Shown: piece by piece, positions 57,182-63,275 of the stretch | Layout of the letters: each line of letters opens with the position of its first letter | Position numbering within the stretch: the first letter of the stretch is position 1 | Assembly: GCF_030814215.1 (NCBI RefSeq) | Contig: NZ_JAUSUT010000001.1 | Location: 6,014,001-6,078,000 of the forward strand | DNA length: 64,000 bases | Direction: 5' to 3' | Source of the DNA: Amycolatopsis thermophila | GTDB lineage: Bacteria > Actinomycetota > Actinomycetes > Mycobacteriales > Pseudonocardiaceae | Notes under the pieces: model-generated | What the model was told of the DNA's origin: nothing | What the model saw: only the letters and a program-made list of their open reading frames with translations | Database searches by the model: none | Translations under genes and position numbers: made by a program

Positions 57182-57907
57182 ATGACCTCACGTCCGCGCC
57201 GGATGTTGCTACTTGCGCTCGCGGCCTTGGCCCTCTCGGCGTGCGGGGCGTCGCCGACCGGACCCGAGCCAGACTCCCGCGAAGCCACGCTCGCGCACAT
57301 CCACGGCCTTGGCGTCGACCCCTCGGACGGCTCGCTGTACGCCGGCAGTCACTACGGCCTGTTCCGGCTACCAGCGGAGGCTCGCCGGAACGCCTCGGAC
57401 CGGTCCAGGACGTCATGGGTTCACCGTCGTCGGGCCACGCCATTTCCTCGCGAGCGGCCATCCCGGCGAGGCGGCCAGGGCACACCCACCTCGGCCTGAT
57501 CGAAACGCGCGACGCGGGGCAGGCCGTGGAACGAGCTCTCACTGGGCGGAACGGCTGATTTCCACGCGATGGAAGCCAAGCACGACCGGGCCGACGTGCT
57601 GATCGCGAACACCGCCGACAGGCTGGCCGGCAGTACGGACGGTGGTGTCACCTTCACCCCGCTGCCCGATGCGCCGGACCTGGTGTCCGTGGAATGGCCG
57701 GCACCGGACGTGTTCTTCGGGTCCGACCCGAACAACACCGTCTACCTCAGCACGGACGGTGGCGGCACCTGGAGGCGCCAAGGCCAGGCTCCCGGTCCGC
57801 CCGCAGCCTTCGCTGCCACGAGTGCCACCGAGGTCTACGTCGCCACGGACTCGGCCATCCACCACTCGACGGACGGCGGCCGGACCCTCCGGCAGACCTT
57901 GAGCTGA
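57182..57907 (+). pseudogene. multiply frameshifted F510_1955-like lipoprotein
   Basis: The gene begins with a lipoprotein signal (LLLALAALALSACGAS; lipobox LSAC) and HIHGLGVDPSDGSLYAGSHY. The frame then shifts several times: PERLGPVQDVM, GFTVVGPRHFLASGHPG, HLGLIETRDAGQA and TADFHAMEAKHDRA. It ends in the original frame with YLSTDGGGTWRRQGQ and HHSTDGGRTL. These pieces fit a beta-propeller-type F510_1955 protein, but about four shifts are needed, so the gene is dead or badly read. Confidence 0.7.
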
Positions 57908-57916
57908 CCGGCCGGA

Positions 57917-57943
57917 ATATACAGTTACCCGGTAATGGTATAT
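57917..57943. promoter_or_regulatory. AT-rich palindrome upstream of the nuo-like operon
   Basis: Left arm ATATACAGTTACC (57917-57929) and right arm GGTAATGGTATAT (57931-57943) match in 11 of 13 positions around a single C. It stands out from the surrounding GC-rich DNA and lies 72 bases before nuoA. It may be an operator; the regulator is not in the window. Confidence 0.6.
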
Positions 57944-58015: not shown

Positions 58016-58357
58016 GTGCTCGGTGCGGTGGCGGCGCTTGTCGCTGTGGTCGCGCTCATCGCCGCGGTGTACGGCATCTCCCTCCTTGCCCGGTTCACGC
58101 GCACGGCGCGCGACGTGCACCCGTTCCTGTCCGGCGGCGCGCCCTCCGAGCACGCGGTGTCGCGGTACCACGTCCGCTGGTACACGGTGACGATGATCTT
58201 CCTGGCGTTCGACATGGAGATGGTGTTCATGTACCCGTGGACGCTCGTCGTGCCGGAGGTCGGCGTCGCGGCGGTCGTGGAGATGTTCCTCTTCCTGGCC
58301 CTGCTCTTCGCGGGTGTCTGGTACGCGTGGCGAGAGGGCGTGTTCCGGTGGACCTGA
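58016..58357 (+). CDS. nuoA: NADH-quinone oxidoreductase subunit A
   Basis: A 113-residue membrane subunit with three predicted helices. The conserved loop YHVRWYTVTMIFLAFDMEMV includes the acidic residues DMEMVF of NuoA. The GTG at 58016 follows GGGAGG at 58005-58010. It opens an operon that continues into the hybrid subunit by a ten-base overlap. Confidence 0.93.
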   Translation: MLGAVAALVAVVALIAAVYGISLLARFTRTARDVHPFLSGGAPSEHAVSRYHVRWYTVTMIFLAFDMEMVFMYPWTLVVPEVGVAAVVEMFLFLALLFAGVWYAWREGVFRWT

Positions 58358-59649
58358 CGTCCTGGCTGCTGCGCCGGACACCGGTGCGGCCGCTGATCGC
58401 CGCCACGCCTGGAGGCGCCGGCGCCCGTCTCGCCGCCGAGCGCGAGGCGCGGATCCGTGGGTGGCGCCTCGCGCTCAGCCCGGCCGAAGCCACCATGCTG
58501 ATCGTCGCTGGGCCGCAGGACGAGAGCATGGCCGCGGCTGTTGAGACGGTGTGGCGGCAGATGCCGTTTCCTCGCAGCCGGGCGGAGTTCGCGGAGGCGG
58601 CGGACGTGGTCACCGCCCTGGCCGAGGCCGAAGCGCGCCTACGCTCTGCCGAGCATCAGCGCCGGGAAGCTGCCCGGGGTGGCGACGCGCAGCACGGCAG
58701 CCATCACCAGGATGCGAGCGGTTCGCCGGAGCATGCCCACCACGGCAGCGGCGAAGCGGGTGGTGGTCAGTCGGCTCCCCCATCCCATCACGAGCACATG
58801 TATGCGCCGCCGGAGGATCACGACCGCGGTCACCGGCCGCACGACGAGCACGCGCACCATGATCACGACAGCGAAGACATGCGCGAACAGCACGATCACC
58901 ACGCAGACGAGCACCCCGGCGACCACACGGCGCTGGAGCATGACCACGGCGGCCACATGCAGCACGGCGGCCACGCCGGGCACGACATGGGCGGCATGGA
59001 GATGCCCGGCGACATCCCCATGGCCGACCGGGCGCCGGACCGCGACGGTCTCCAGCTCGATCGGCTGACGGTGCAGCTCGGGCCCATCCTGCCGGCGTGG
59101 CCGGATGGACTGGTGGTCCGCGTCGCGCTCCAGGGTGACGTCATCCAGGAGGCGGCGGTCGAGACGAACGGGAGCCAAGACGTCGCGGAACCGTTCTGGC
59201 AGTCGCTCGAGGACGGTGTTCCTCGCGACGCCGCCAGGCGGCTCGACAGCTGCTACCGGCTGCTCACGGTCGCCGGCTGGGAGCAGGCGGCGGACACGGC
59301 GGCCCGGATGCGTGACCTCGTTCTGGCAGGTGAACGGATCTCCGCCGAGTTCCACCGGTGGGCCCGGAGGGTCCGCCGGTCACGGATCTTGCGGTGGTCG
59401 TTGTCCGGTCTCGGCGAGATCGACTGGGTGGACTCCCCCGCCACCGGTGACGCACTGGACCGGTTGACCCGGTGGATCGACGACGCGGAGGCGGAGCTGG
59501 GCTCGGGCGAACCCGTCCCCGACGAGGACCCTGCCCGGATTCTCGAAGCGCTGCCGGAGTTGCTCATCGGTACCGAGTTCGCGGGGGCGCGGTTGATCGT
59601 AGCGAGCCTGGACCCGGACCTCGAGCGAGCACGGGTGGCCCATGGTTGA
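58348..59649 (+). CDS. His-rich hybrid complex-I-like subunit (NuoB/NuoD-like ends)
   Basis: A 433-residue protein. Residues about 44-77 (SPAEATMLIVAGPQDESM and VWRQMPFPR) resemble a NuoB stretch but lack its cluster cysteines. Residues about 103-212 contain 28 histidines with Asp, Glu and Gly, including HHDHDSEDM and HGGHAGHDMGG. Residues about 226-275 (DRDGLQLDRLTVQLGPILP and LQGDVIQEAAVE) resemble NuoD or hydrogenase large-subunit sequence, and the C-terminus is helical. The protein starts at GTG 58348, overlapping nuoA by ten bases. The role is unknown; metal binding by the His-rich segment is likely. Confidence 0.85.
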   Translation: MDLTSWLLRRTPVRPLIAATPGGAGARLAAEREARIRGWRLALSPAEATMLIVAGPQDESMAAAVETVWRQMPFPRSRAEFAEAADVVTALAEAEARLRSAEHQRREAARGGDAQHGSHHQDASGSPEHAHHGSGEAGGGQSAPPSHHEHMYAPPEDHDRGHRPHDEHAHHDHDSEDMREQHDHHADEHPGDHTALEHDHGGHMQHGGHAGHDMGGMEMPGDIPMADRAPDRDGLQLDRLTVQLGPILPAWPDGLVVRVALQGDVIQEAAVETNGSQDVAEPFWQSLEDGVPRDAARRLDSCYRLLTVAGWEQAADTAARMRDLVLAGERISAEFHRWARRVRRSRILRWSLSGLGEIDWVDSPATGDALDRLTRWIDDAEAELGSGEPVPDEDPARILEALPELLIGTEFAGARLIVASLDPDLERARVAHG

Positions 59650-60565
59650 GCAGCTCCCCTTCTGGGGCGGACTGGTCCTGCCGGTCGTGCTGGTATCGCT
59701 CGTCGCCGCCGCCGCGGCCTGGGACTCGGCGCTCGCCTCCCGAGCGTCCGGCGGCCCGGCGAGCGCACTGGTTGCGCCCTTCCACGCCGTGGCCGGGCTG
59801 CTGGTGCAACAGCGGCGGCGCACCCTCGCCGCCGACCTCCTGCTCTGGCGAGGTGGCGCGCTCGCCCTGGTGGGCGCGGGTGTCCTGGCATCCCTGGTGA
59901 CCCCGCTCGGCCGCTGGGTGGTCGCCGACTTCTCCATCGGGATCGTGTGGTTCAACGCGATGGAGGTCGTCGCCTGGGCCGCGGTCTGGCTCGTCGGCTG
60001 GGGCGCCAACTCGGCCTATGGACTCATCGGCGGGTACCGCTTCGTCGCCCTGGGGCTGGCCTACGAGCTGCCGCACATGTTCGCGCTGATCACGACGGCT
60101 CTGGGGGCCGAGTCGCTCCGGGTCGGCGACGTGGTCGCGGCACAGGATGCGGTGTGGTTCGTCGTGTGGATGCCGGTCGCCTTCGTGGTCTACCTGCTGT
60201 CGGTCCTCGCGATGGCGTTCTGGGGACCGTTCGGCCAAGCGGTCGCCGCGGATCTGGCCGGCGGCGCGGCCGCCGAGCTATCCGGTGTGGACCGTCTGCT
60301 GTTCGAGGCGGGACGGTGGCTCCTTCTGGTGTCGGGAGCGGCGTTCGCGGTACCGCTGTTCCTCGGCGGCGGCTCCGGCCCCCTGCTTCCGGACTGGCTG
60401 TGGTCGCTGCTGAAGACCCTCGCCGTGCTGGCCTCGCTCGTGTGGGTGCGGCGGTGGGTGCCGACCGTGCGCATGGAGCGCTACCAGGAGATCGCGTGGA
60501 TCGTGCTGATCCCGCTGACGTTGCTGCAAGCGCTCGTGGTGGCTCTCGTGGTCCTCGCCCGGTGA
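59642..60565 (+). CDS. nuoH: NADH-quinone oxidoreductase subunit H
   Basis: A 307-residue membrane subunit with about eight helices. The conserved NSAYGLIGGYRFVALGLAYE segment (near residues 122-141) corresponds to the quinone-site loop of NuoH, with the glutamate retained. It is shorter than typical NuoH. The ATG overlaps the hybrid gene by eight bases, indicating coupling. Confidence 0.9.
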   Translation: MVEQLPFWGGLVLPVVLVSLVAAAAAWDSALASRASGGPASALVAPFHAVAGLLVQQRRRTLAADLLLWRGGALALVGAGVLASLVTPLGRWVVADFSIGIVWFNAMEVVAWAAVWLVGWGANSAYGLIGGYRFVALGLAYELPHMFALITTALGAESLRVGDVVAAQDAVWFVVWMPVAFVVYLLSVLAMAFWGPFGQAVAADLAGGAAAELSGVDRLLFEAGRWLLLVSGAAFAVPLFLGGGSGPLLPDWLWSLLKTLAVLASLVWVRRWVPTVRMERYQEIAWIVLIPLTLLQALVVALVVLAR

Positions 60566-60581: not shown

Positions 60582-61145
60582 ATGTGGGCACAGATCGCCT
60601 TCTGGGTCTGCGCCGTCGGCTCCGTCGTCACCGGAGTCGCGGTGTTCCGGGTGGACTCGATGGCGCGCGCGACGTTCGCGCTCCTGGCGTCGTTCGTCTT
60701 CGCCGCCGGGACCGTGCTGCTGCTGAACCTGGCCTACCTGGGCATTCTCGTGGTCCTCATGATGATCATGGAGATGGTCGTCATGGTGGTCTTCATGATC
60801 ATGTACATGATGAACCCGGCCGGGTTGATGCCGATGACCATGGTGCACAACCAGAAGGGTTCGCTGGCGATCGCCGGCGGGGTGTTCGCCGCACTGGTCG
60901 CGGGCATCTTCCTGATCCCCTGGCCCACGTCGGGCGATCCCCGGCCGGCCGACCCCACGCGGGCGCTCGGTGAGGCCCTGATGGGGTCGAAGATGCTGGT
61001 GATGATGGTGCTGGGGCTGTGCCTGTTCGCCACCATGGTGGCCACCGTCGTCCTGGCGACACACCGGGGCCGTTACGACCGTTATGGCGACCGGCTCGAC
61101 GCCAAGCATCCCGACGACCCGGTGCGAGGGGGCTTGAACCGGTGA
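60582..61145 (+). CDS. nuoJ: NADH-quinone oxidoreductase subunit J
   Basis: A 187-residue subunit with five predicted helices. The LNLAYLGILVVLMMIMEMVV helix is the NuoJ signature, including the conserved glutamate. This region is notably methionine-rich (MMIMEMVVMVVFMIMYMM). ATG 60582 follows AAGGAG. Confidence 0.9.
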   Translation: MWAQIAFWVCAVGSVVTGVAVFRVDSMARATFALLASFVFAAGTVLLLNLAYLGILVVLMMIMEMVVMVVFMIMYMMNPAGLMPMTMVHNQKGSLAIAGGVFAALVAGIFLIPWPTSGDPRPADPTRALGEALMGSKMLVMMVLGLCLFATMVATVVLATHRGRYDRYGDRLDAKHPDDPVRGGLNR

Positions 61146-61447
61146 TCCTGCAACAGTTCCTGCTCCTGGCCGCGGCGCTGTTCAGCGTCGGCCTCTACGG
61201 CGCGCTCTCCCAGCAGTCCATCGTGATGATCATGATGGGGCTGGAGCTGATGGCCAACGCGGTCATCGTGGCGGCGTCGGCGTACTGGTACTTCGCCTCG
61301 CCCAGCCGCCCCGACGGCCAGGTCGTGGTGGTCGTCGCGCTCGTGCTGATGGCGGTGGACATGGCGATCGGGTTCGCCGTCACGACCGCGATCTTCCGGC
61401 GCCGGGACGTGGACATGACCGACTCCGCGGCGGACCTCAAGGGCTGA
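61142..61447 (+). CDS. nuoK: NADH-quinone oxidoreductase subunit K
   Basis: A 101-residue antiporter-like subunit with three helices. The membrane glutamate in MGLELMANAVIVAA is conserved, and LMAVDMAIGFAVTTAIFRRR includes the second acidic position as an aspartate instead of glutamate. The GTG at 61142 overlaps the nuoJ stop (GTGA). Confidence 0.91.
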   Translation: MILQQFLLLAAALFSVGLYGALSQQSIVMIMMGLELMANAVIVAASAYWYFASPSRPDGQVVVVVALVLMAVDMAIGFAVTTAIFRRRDVDMTDSAADLKG

Positions 61448-61451
61448 ACCG

Positions 61452-63275
61452 ATGACCCTGTGGCTGCTCATCGCGCTCCCCGTCGTGGCCGGAGGCGCCC
61501 TCCTGCTGTCGGGCCACCGCGCCGACCGGCTCGCTGCCTGGGCCGGCATCGGCGCGGCAGCCGTGACGACGGTGCTGGCGATCATCGCCGCCGCCGGACG
61601 GCCGGAGGTCTCGATGCCGTTCCTGGCCGGCCTGCGGATCGGGCTCGGCGTCGACGGGCTGTCGGCCGTCATAGTGGTGACCGTCGCGGTCATCCTGCTC
61701 GCGGTGCTCGTCTTCGCGGGTGGGGAGTTCGGGGCCGACGAATCCCGTGCGCGCTTCCACGGCCTGATGCTGGTCTTCGCCGCGGCGATGCTGGTGACGG
61801 TCACCGCGCGCGACCTGGTCGTGCTGCTCATGGCCTGGGAAGTCATGGGCGCCTGCTCGTACGCCCTCATCGGGTTCTGGTGGCGGGAAGAGCGCCGGGC
61901 GGGCTCGGGTGTGGTCGCGTTCCTCACCACCCGGACGGCCGACTTGGGGCTGTACCTCGCGGCCGGGGCGGCGCTCGCAGGTGGGGTCGGTGGTCTCACC
62001 CTGGCCGGGCTGCCCGGGGCGGCGGGCGGATGGCGGGACGCCGTCGCGGCCGGGCTGGTGCTCGCCGCGATCGGCAAATCCGCCCAGTTGCCGTTCAGCT
62101 TCTGGCTTTCCCGGGCCATGGACGGCCCGAGCCCGGTCTCGGCGCTGCTGCACTCGGCGACGATGGTGGCGGCCGGTGCGTATCTGTTGCTGCGGTCCGA
62201 GCCGCTGCTGGCCGCGACCGGGTGGGCGGCCACCACGGTCGCGTGGATCGGGGTGCTCACCGCGCTGGCGCTCGGCGCCGTCGCGGTGGCGCAGCGCGAC
62301 CTCAAGCAGGTGCTGGCCGCGTCGACCTGCTCCCAGATCGGGTTCATGGTGCTCGCGGCCGGCACTGGCGGTGTGGCGGCCGGGACGGGTCAGCTCGTGG
62401 CGCACGCGGCGACGAAGAGCCTGCTGTTCCTCGGGGCCGGTGCGTGGCTCGTCGCGCTGGACACCAAGGACCTCGCGCGGCTGAAGGGTGCCGCGCGGCG
62501 TTTCCCGCTGCTCGGTGCGGTGTTCACGATCGGTGCGCTGAGCCTGGCGGGCGTGCCCCCGCTGTCGATCTGGGTGACCAAGGACGCGGTCCTCGCCGCC
62601 GCGCTGGCCGATTCCCCCGCCCTCCACGTGGCCGGGCTGGCGGCCGCACTGCTCAGCGGCGCCTACGTGGGCCGGGTGCTGGCCATCGTCTGGCAGCCCG
62701 GCGACACCATTGGGGCCCGGCCGCCGAACTCGTTGCTCATCGGCCCGCTGCCGGTCCTCGCCCTCGCCGCCGCGGTACTCGGGATTGTCGGTCTGCCCAG
62801 GCCCGCTCGCTGGTTCGCCTCGCTTCTCGGCGCCCCCGAGAACACCGGGGTCACCTGGTTCGAGCAGGCCATTTCCGGGTTGATCGCGCTCGCCGGCGCC
62901 GTGGCCGCCGCCTCGTGGACCCGTTCGCGGCCGCTCGCCGCACCGTCCTTGCCGGCCGGCTGGCTCGGGCTCGAGCGGCTCGCACGACTGCTCGTCGTGA
63001 CGCCTGCCCTGCGCTTGGCGGACGGGCTGGCCCGCTTCGACGACCGGGTGGTGGATGGCGGGGTCCGCGCCGCCGCCGCGACCGCGGGCGCCCTCGGCCG
63101 GCTGGTCGACCTGCGTGTCGAGTGGTCGATCGACGGCGCTGTACGTGGCCTGACCAGGGCGGCCCGGTCCCTGGGGCGGCAGGCACCGCGGCCGCAGACC
63201 GGTCAGCTGCACCACTACTACGCCCAGGCCGCGGTCGCGCTGGGTGTCCTGGCTCTGTTGTTGATCGTCCTGTGA
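61452..63275 (+). CDS. nuoL: NADH-quinone oxidoreductase subunit L
   Basis: A 607-residue antiporter-like subunit. Key ion-path residues are visible: the glutamate in LLMAWEVMGACSYALIG, the lysine in IGKSAQLPFSFWLSRAMDG and the histidine in PVSALLHSATMVAAGAYLLL. The C-terminal helix region and terminal transmembrane helix are retained. It is the proton-pumping subunit by homology; which ion moves here is untested. Confidence 0.93.
   Translation: MTLWLLIALPVVAGGALLLSGHRADRLAAWAGIGAAAVTTVLAIIAAAGRPEVSMPFLAGLRIGLGVDGLSAVIVVTVAVILLAVLVFAGGEFGADESRARFHGLMLVFAAAMLVTVTARDLVVLLMAWEVMGACSYALIGFWWREERRAGSGVVAFLTTRTADLGLYLAAGAALAGGVGGLTLAGLPGAAGGWRDAVAAGLVLAAIGKSAQLPFSFWLSRAMDGPSPVSALLHSATMVAAGAYLLLRSEPLLAATGWAATTVAWIGVLTALALGAVAVAQRDLKQVLAASTCSQIGFMVLAAGTGGVAAGTGQLVAHAATKSLLFLGAGAWLVALDTKDLARLKGAARRFPLLGAVFTIGALSLAGVPPLSIWVTKDAVLAAALADSPALHVAGLAAALLSGAYVGRVLAIVWQPGDTIGARPPNSLLIGPLPVLALAAAVLGIVGLPRPARWFASLLGAPENTGVTWFEQAISGLIALAGAVAAASWTRSRPLAAPSLPAGWLGLERLARLLVVTPALRLADGLARFDDRVVDGGVRAAAATAGALGRLVDLRVEWSIDGAVRGLTRAARSLGRQAPRPQTGQLHHYYAQAAVALGVLALLLIVL

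What the first reader, a model, noticed from the sequence alone, without database searches (positions are those of the whole stretch)
58348..59649. NuoB/NuoD-like hybrid with a 28-histidine insert
Short NuoB-like and NuoD-like stretches, without NuoB cysteines, flank a segment of 28 histidines in about 110 residues. This suggests that an ancestral fusion lost its Fe-S role and gained metal binding, perhaps as a metal-sensing or metal-storing regulator of the membrane arm.
Basis: partly seen in the sequence, partly recalled or inferred. Interest (0 to 1): 0.85.

Follow-up and report, generated by a model that had tools for sequence, protein, structure and literature searches.

The report
Copper-linked complex I relative without redox
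A bacterial gene fuses remnants of two core proteins of the respiratory enzyme complex I around a metal-binding stretch, and sits in an operon for the rest of that enzyme's membrane pump that often keeps company with copper-resistance genes, suggesting an ion pump re-purposed to handle copper.

Summary
A 433-residue CDS (58348-59649) sits in the operon nuoA-X-nuoH-J-K-L-M-N and has 28 His in 110 residues. Residues 35-82 match NuoB (hhalign E 3e-8) and 229-270 match the NuoD N-terminus (E 1.6e-4); ten of ten distant relatives scanned pass Pfam's Complex1_49kDa cut-off. The N2-cluster cysteines and the NuoD HPSTHG motif are gone. All eight genes are present in 56 of 69 actinomycete-type loci; 12 of the other 13 are cut by contig ends.

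Six of six scanned proteins of one deep branch carry Pfam's heavy-metal-binding domain between the two halves. A CsoR-family gene flanks 14 of 51 loci (0.26 expected). Plasmid copies often lie beside heavy-metal genes. NuoJ TM3 holds 10-13 Met in 65 of 65 operons, against 0-3 in 30 canonical NuoJ. NuoL and NuoM keep their proton-path residues; four of six NuoH quinone-cavity acids are lost.

Best reading: a redox-decoupled complex I relative serving copper (soft-metal) resistance, with X as its metal-binding cytosolic cap, perhaps feeding a Met-lined Cu(I) path driven by protons. Architecture and copper association are well supported; transport is inferred. Ten library searches (listed in the full report) showed no prior description.

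The parts
58348..59649 (+). gene X: NuoB-like / His-rich linker / NuoD-like fusion, 433 aa
58348..58647 (+). NuoB-derived N-terminal domain (residues 1-100), no cysteine
   Evidence: hhalign E 3.4e-8 to NuoB over residues 35-82, PDB NuoB hits best E 1.9e-6, block pLDDT 74-95
58648..59019 (+). His-rich linker (residues 101-224; 28 His), predicted disordered
   Evidence: pLDDT below 50 for most of residues 115-236
59020..59646 (+). NuoD-derived C-terminal domain (residues 225-433), starts MADRAPDRDGL
   Evidence: hhalign E 1.6e-4 over residues 229-270; Foldseek NuoD hits; relatives above PF00346 cut-off
58016..58357 (+). nuoA
   Evidence: Pfam Oxidored_q4 E 2.1e-24
59642..60565 (+). nuoH; four of six quinone-cavity acids lost, one of them a conserved Arg
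   Evidence: Pfam NADHdh E 2.8e-40; residue counts
60582..61145 (+). nuoJ with Met-rich TM3
   Evidence: Pfam Oxidored_q3 E 3e-13
60735..60848 (+). Met-rich TM3 segment of NuoJ (residues 52-89)
   Evidence: 10-13 Met in 65 of 65 operons against 0-3 in 30 canonical NuoJ; 10-12 in 13 of 13 further loci with a NuoJ hit
61142..61447 (+). nuoK
   Evidence: Pfam Oxidored_q2 E 6.6e-15; start inferred
61452..63275 (+). nuoL; nuoM (from about 63286) and nuoN follow, mostly beyond the window
   Evidence: Pfam Proton_antipo_M; locus L002
57926..57940 (+). TACCC-N6-GGTA site upstream of nuoA, possible copper-regulator operator
   Evidence: suggestive only, motif variant defined after inspection
57182..57907 (+). 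interrupted F510_1955-type BNR lipoprotein gene, a recurrent neighbour of this operon
   Evidence: NCBIfam NF045728 on both pieces, below its cut-off

Best explanation
The operon nuoA-X-nuoHJKLMN encodes a complex I-type membrane arm that has lost its redox driver and has been taken into copper (soft-metal) resistance in Actinomycetota. X is the cytosolic cap that replaces NuoB and NuoD. Its NuoB-like and NuoD-like halves are proposed to dock on NuoA/NuoH, and the His/Met/Asp-rich linker, or an HMBD domain in a deep branch, captures metal at the site where quinone and cluster N2 used to act. I propose that metal, most likely Cu(I), passes from this cap to the methionine-lined NuoJ helix at the A/H/J/K junction, and that its movement is coupled to proton flow through NuoL/M(/N): a complex I-derived proton/copper antiporter, or a copper-gated proton channel. 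Shown by sequence: architecture, loss of redox ligands, retained proton-path residues, Met helix, copper-gene linkage, HMBD. Inferred: assembly, metal identity, transport, direction and coupling.
For: Homology. Two-domain model of a His-free relative: mean pLDDT 90.6, pTM 0.89. All eight genes in 56 of 69 loci. Proton-path residues: NuoL E/K/H/K 65 of 65 and NuoM D/K/K/E 62 of 62, while NuoH loses four of six quinone-cavity acids, one of them to Arg in 63 of 65. NuoJ TM3 has a mean of 11.7 Met (n 65) against 1.9 (n 30), and 10-12 Met in 13 of 13 further loci with a NuoJ hit. HMBD in 6 of 6 scanned deep-branch X. CsoR beside 14 of 51 loci, 0.26 expected, and in 11 of 27 genus labels (counts). 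Plasmid linkage: nuoA starts 87 bp after a multicopper oxidase gene and 81 bp after a heavy-metal P-type ATPase gene that follows an HMA gene. The 15-mer TACCCCCTAGGGGTA, present in the S. lividans copZA1 CsoR operator variants printed in PMC3902906, lies upstream of nuoA in two loci.
Against: No experiment was found. 26 of 51 loci with at least 3.5 kb upstream show none of the seven copper-linked families that I scanned. CsoR was picked for testing after the neighbourhoods had been seen; the other six families had no genome-wide control. The linker has 3 or fewer His in 11 of 55 relatives, so His is not essential. More linker His goes with copper neighbours only weakly (P 0.03 by count, 0.09 by fraction). 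A compensating His tract in other subunits was not supported (2 of 11 against 6 of 44, P 0.65). The window's own locus has only an interrupted F510_1955 gene, a BlaI/CopY-type regulator and DUF305 nearby; the genome's three CsoR genes lie elsewhere. Foldseek E-values are weak (best 9e-4 and 5e-3). Two of six NuoH cavity acids are kept, and NuoN lacks the TM5 Glu in 62 of 62.
Confidence: 0.6

Rival explanations
1. X is a metal sensor or gate on a proton/cation antiporter (Mrp-like). Copper binding to the linker opens or closes proton flow to protect proton motive force or pH under metal stress; no metal crosses the membrane.
For: Retained proton paths, His/HMBD linker, copper-gene linkage, variable linker length.
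Against: Does not explain why a transmembrane helix of NuoJ has 10-13 Met in 65 of 65 operons.
Confidence: 0.25
2. The complex still does redox work with an unknown partner, for example copper-ion or quinone redox at the H/X junction, and the Met/His residues hold a redox-active copper site in place of cluster N2.
For: Cap is expected where quinone and N2 act; multicopper oxidase genes lie nearby on three of the eight plasmids opened.
Against: None of the eight genes of the operon is a flavin, Fe-S or NADH subunit; HPSTHG motif, N2 cysteines and four of six NuoH cavity acids lost.
Confidence: 0.08
3. The His tract is only a flexible, drifting spacer, and the operon is a generic ion pump that hitch-hikes in mobile resistance islands.
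For: Linker length 14-257 and His 0-25%; tandem-repeat expansions; 11 of 55 almost His-free; plasmid-borne.
Against: A bona fide metal-binding domain at that place in a deep branch, invariant Met helix, CsoR linkage in 11 of 27 genus labels.
Confidence: 0.07

Closest known systems
Respiratory complex I (NuoA-N), Q- and membrane modules
   Same: Gene set A, H, J, K, L, M, N; X descends from NuoB and NuoD; proton-path residues of L and M kept
   Different: No C, E, F, G, I in the operon; no N2 cysteines, no HPSTHG, four of six quinone-cavity acids of NuoH lost; Met-rich NuoJ; metal-binding insert
Mrp-type cation/proton antiporters
   Same: Works like: a redox-free complex of antiporter-like subunits (start of the abstracts of PMC7419157 and PMC9568556 seen in a search listing; rest recalled)
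   Different: Has NuoA, NuoH and a NuoB/D cap, which Mrp lacks (recalled); linked here to copper genes
Membrane-bound hydrogenase, MBS and Ehr complexes
   Same: Same superfamily with NuoB/NuoD-type cap (recalled); MBS L and formate hydrogenlyase E and G chains appear among fold hits
   Different: MBH, MBS and formate hydrogenlyase keep a redox role and Fe-S clusters (recalled); X lacks the ligands
HMBD (PF19335) of heavy-metal proteins
   Same: Found at the linker position of X in 6 of 6 scanned deep-branch proteins
   Different: In the window's X the place is taken by a His-rich tract, not HMBD

Membership tests
NuoB | profile similarity over the subunit | tested here: inconclusive
   residues 35-82 only, hhalign E 3.4e-8; below the NCBIfam cut-offs of the four models listed
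NuoB | four cysteines for cluster N2 | tested here: not met
   no Cys in residues 1-301; in relatives' N-domains 0-3 Cys, none in an invariant or nearly invariant column
NuoD | PF00346 above gathering score | tested here: inconclusive
   not met by the window protein; met by 10 of 10 distant relatives scanned, 32 to 69 bits
NuoD | quinone-site HPSTHG motif | tested here: not met
   aligned to GPxLPxWPxG in the X family, without its histidines
Complex I | peripheral electron-input subunits in the operon | tested here: not met
   operon is A-X-H-J-K-L-M-N; the genome's only PF01058 and PF00346 matches are elsewhere
Complex I | charged residues of the antiporter-like subunits | tested here: met
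   NuoL 65 of 65 and NuoM 62 of 62 (E to D in NuoM TM5); but NuoN TM5 Glu is Leu in 62 of 62; residue numbers and roles recalled
Copper efflux transporter | metal-dependent expression and transport | not testable with these tools
   only genomic linkage, operator-like sites and Met/His/HMBD content
Mrp antiporter | cation/proton exchange | not testable with these tools
   needs a transport assay

The most novel reading that the evidence does not exclude
A complex I-derived machine in which the quinone/Fe-S driver was replaced by a metal-capturing NuoB/NuoD fusion and a methionine-lined NuoJ conduit, so that proton flow through NuoL/M expels Cu(I) (or Ag(I)/Hg(II)) from the cytosol: a new class of copper exporter carried on chromosomes and plasmids of Actinomycetota.
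Probability: 0.42. Interest if true: 0.96.

Novelty: new variant of a known kind. Interest (0 to 1): 0.86.

Why it matters
If true, the complex I fold can be driven by, or drive, a metal ion rather than electrons. That would give a natural redox-free system in which to dissect how the A/H/J/K junction couples to proton movement, a long-open question in bioenergetics. It would also add a layer to bacterial copper resistance that I found undescribed in the library searched and that occurs on plasmids, including those of environmental and clinical mycobacteria. Its key protein is annotated there as hypothetical or as DUF4779 (in the five M. avium and M. intracellulare records: DUF4779 in four, hypothetical in one).

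Tried and rejected
Rejected: chance frame or artefact (conserved family). Rejected: canonical NuoB or NuoD subunit (defining ligands absent). Weak DUF3203 and Dicistro_VP4 hits were taken as chance. DUF4779 in plasmid annotation was taken as a low-complexity label; not tested. Tried and unsupported: His tracts in other subunits compensating for His-poor linkers. Tried and zero: the exact motif TACCC-N5-GGTA upstream of nuoA, 0 of 62; the N6 variant was added after looking at the sequences, so it is post hoc. TACCC-N5-GGGTA was picked from a palindrome screen of the same upstream regions (5 genus labels against a maximum of 4 in 20 mononucleotide shuffles), so its later count is not independent. 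Apparent NlpC neighbours were partly antisense to CsoR and were not used. Rows dropped: 14 of 68 fetched loci (cut ends, uncertain start or split frame) were left out of the 55-row alignment A2 (54 loci plus the window), and six long-linker rows were left out of A3 (49 rows). On checking, one search had printed the wrong stretch for two loci (L166, L168); one search corrects this.

Full report
What is there. The CDS 58348-59649 (433 aa, GTG start overlapping the nuoA stop) is the second gene of an operon nuoA-X-nuoH-nuoJ-nuoK-nuoL-nuoM-nuoN. The genome (7.3 Mb, one contig) holds a single PF01058 match and a single PF00346 match, both at about 1.74 Mb, that is, its canonical NuoB and NuoD. X has 28 His in residues 103-212, two more His, and one Cys at 302. 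Among 60 relatives plus this genome, 8 of 61 have X.

Homology of the two halves. Single-sequence matches are weak: NCBIfam NuoB models at E 0.005 to 0.035 and no relevant Pfam hit. Profiles settle it. Of the 55 family members, 34 match TIGR01957 nuoB at E up to 0.1, best 6e-5, and 5 match Pfam PF00346, best 4e-4. A profile of the family finds NuoB chains of the PDB at E 1.9e-6, at profile positions 35-84. HMM-HMM comparison gives N-part against NuoB E 3.4e-8 (probability 95%) and C-part against the NuoD N-terminus E 1.6e-4 (probability 50%); the crossed pairs gave 0.19 and 0.78. The NuoB side used only the 10 of 30 loci that passed my motif filter and the NuoD side 26 of 30. By eye, the C-terminal segment GAELAxARLIVASLDPD resembles the NuoD C-terminus VADVIAAVASVDPVMGGVDR.

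Structure. AlphaFold2 on the window protein with 8 sequences gives mean pLDDT 73.6, with both ends mostly 80 to 95 and most of residues 115-236 below 50. A relative with a 15-residue linker (L063, 49 sequences) gives pLDDT 90.6 and pTM 0.89. The 50 Foldseek rows listed for each model (of 442 and 449) are complex I or NDH entries, whose chains I read as NuoD/49 kDa, NuoCD or NuoB/PSST (partly by comparison, partly recalled); for the second model MBS and formate hydrogenlyase chains appear too. E-values are weak (best 8.9e-4 and 5.3e-3) although probabilities are mostly near 1.

What is lost and what is kept. The region aligned to NuoB lacks the N2 cysteines, and the NuoD quinone motif GPQHPSTHG is GPxLPxWPxG. 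The operon's own subunits were compared with the same genome's complex I (residue numbers and roles recalled). NuoL keeps Glu/Lys/His/Lys in 65 of 65. NuoM has Asp/Lys/Lys/Glu in 62 of 62 (Asp where complex I has Glu). NuoN keeps three Lys in 60 to 62 of 62, but its TM5 Glu is Leu in 62 of 62. NuoK has acids (Glu or Asp) at both sites in 65 of 65. NuoH keeps the TM5 Glu in 65 of 65. Of six acids near its quinone cavity, one column is a gap in 65 of 65, one is never acidic, one is acidic in 15 of 65, and the AEY Glu is Arg in 63 of 65; the other two are still acidic in 63 and 64 of 65. So the ion paths are under selection while the redox and quinone end is remodelled.

The methionine helix. In NuoJ, Met 27, 60, 65, 68, 72, 76, 77, 85, 87, 134, 138 and 141 and His 89 are invariant in 65 of 65 operons; Met 61, 74 and 83 are in 64, 62 and 61. 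In the 38-residue TM3 segment the operon proteins have 10-13 Met (mean 11.7, n 65) against 0-3 (mean 1.9, n 30) in canonical NuoJ, one per genome from 30 Actinomycetota including this one. In the 14 further loci described below, the 13 with a NuoJ hit have 10-12 Met in this segment; the fourteenth is a short contig without a NuoJ hit. NuoK (Met 29, 31, 32, 70, 74) and NuoA (His 46, 52; Met 67, 69, 72, 90) also show conserved soft ligands, but for these I ran no canonical control set. Met-lined membrane paths are the known chemistry of Cu(I)/Ag(I) transporters (recalled: CTR1, CusA).

The insert. Linkers vary from 14 to 257 residues with 0 to 25% His; 44 of 55 have more than 3 His. Several are tandem repeats of different units (for example EGMDHGSGH or AGHDMGG), so the tract has probably been rebuilt more than once. 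With profile A3, 22 of 296 Actinomycetota genomes matched at E up to 1e-10. I fetched 14 stretches, two of which (L171, L172) are close relatives and the rest more distant. Six came from one family (f28), of 11 genomes of that family with a match. All six of these X carry Pfam HMBD (E 5.5e-12 to 1.4e-14) between a NuoB-like stretch (PF01058 listed in 4 of 6, best E 2e-4, below the cut-off) and a NuoD-like part above the PF00346 cut-off; four more without HMBD also pass that cut-off (10 of the 14 were scanned). This is the most direct sign that the insert is a metal-binding module.

Genomic company. A scan of 84,980 species genomes with one peptide pattern gave 68 confirmed loci: 67 labelled as actinomycetes and one unverified 'Bacillus'. 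Of 69 loci including the window, 56 show all eight genes, 12 are cut by a contig end, and one (L089) has an X fragment without nuo genes. Recurrent neighbours include DUF305, CsoR, P-type ATPase, HMA/CopZ-like, DUF326 (Csp-like), multicopper oxidase and F510_1955 BNR proteins. CsoR-family genes number 1 to 7 per genome. In a set of 51 loci whose genomes I counted, CsoR lies in the fetched flanks of 14 against 0.26 expected (P 5e-21), or 11 of 27 genus labels (P 7e-17). These P values assume random placement and a family chosen beforehand; relatedness, and my having seen the neighbourhoods first, make them optimistic. In another set of 51 loci (the A2 rows with at least 3.5 kb upstream; 4 of 55 skipped), 25 have at least one of seven copper-linked families and 26 have none; only CsoR had a genome-wide control. 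In the 14 further loci, 10 have at least one.

Plasmids. tblastn found 15 plasmid records with X (13 with the window protein). I opened 8. In Arthrobacter FB24 plasmid 1, DUF305, F510_1955 and multicopper oxidase genes precede nuoA, the last by 87 bp. In Curtobacterium pC1a an HMA gene and a heavy-metal P-type ATPase gene precede nuoA, the last by 81 bp. Pseudonocardia alni, M. avium pMAH135 and M. paragordonae carry heavy-metal ATPases nearby; Ornithinimicrobium has DUF305 and metal regulators; R. oxybenzonivorans has only a BlaI/CopY regulator; R. pyridinivorans shows none.

Regulation. Upstream of nuoA, TACCC-N5-GGGTA occurs in 5 of 62 loci against a mean of 0.25 and a maximum of 2 in random windows. 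The 15-mer TACCCCCTAGGGGTA, found in L055 (about 53 bp upstream) and L062 (237 bp upstream, possibly belonging to another gene), is also the centre of the S. lividans copZA1 CsoR operator variants printed in PMC3902906 (passages read). The window has a related TACCC-N6-GGTA at 57926-57940. Both motifs were chosen after seeing these regions.

Mechanism and status. Shown by sequence: a redox-stripped complex I membrane arm with a NuoB/NuoD-derived cap, a metal-binding insert, a Met-rich NuoJ helix, and copper-gene linkage. Inferred: that X docks as NuoB/D do, that it hands Cu(I) to a NuoJ-lined path, and that proton flow through NuoL/M powers it. A copper-gated proton channel or antiporter without metal transport remains a serious rival.

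Prior knowledge. Ten library searches, some of them narrow, listed no title or abstract start describing such an operon. In PMC12361115, a 2025 HMM survey of complex I, I saw 12 passages only; it counts partial Nuo clusters, and the passages seen mention no NuoB/NuoD fusion. The library lacks most subscription journals, so an earlier report may exist.

Noticed in passing
window 57182-57907: The F510_1955-type BNR lipoprotein gene upstream of nuoA is broken into pieces by stops and frame changes, so it looks interrupted in this genome; a relative (L027) has an open frame.
   Followed up: partly
L063, L066, L040, L069, L032, L045, L081 (nuoJ) and L041 (nuoM): His-rich tracts also occur on NuoJ tails (7 of 55 loci) or NuoM (1 of 55), so such tracts arise at more than one place in the complex.
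   Followed up: partly
L154 (M. avium pMAH135) and L159 (M. paragordonae plasmid): The operon is carried on plasmids of clinical mycobacteria near heavy-metal ATPase genes; X is annotated DUF4779 or hypothetical.
   Followed up: partly
L072: A contig labelled Bacillus sp. AZ43 (unverified organism) encodes a Blastococcus-like X, perhaps a mislabelled or contaminated record.
   Followed up: no
L089 (Jiangella muralis): An X fragment stands without detected nuo genes in an 18 kb stretch.
   Followed up: no
L078, L091: X is split between reading frames, in L078 around the repeat-rich linker.
   Followed up: no
nuoH of the operon: A Glu of complex I NuoH (AEY motif) is replaced by Arg in 63 of 65 operons, a possible signature of the new function.
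   Followed up: partly
L002 12510-16914, beyond the window end: Downstream of nuoN lie an NlpC/P60 hydrolase, a metalloprotease-like gene, a BlaI/CopY-type regulator and DUF305, a set partly shared with a Pseudonocardia plasmid.
   Followed up: partly
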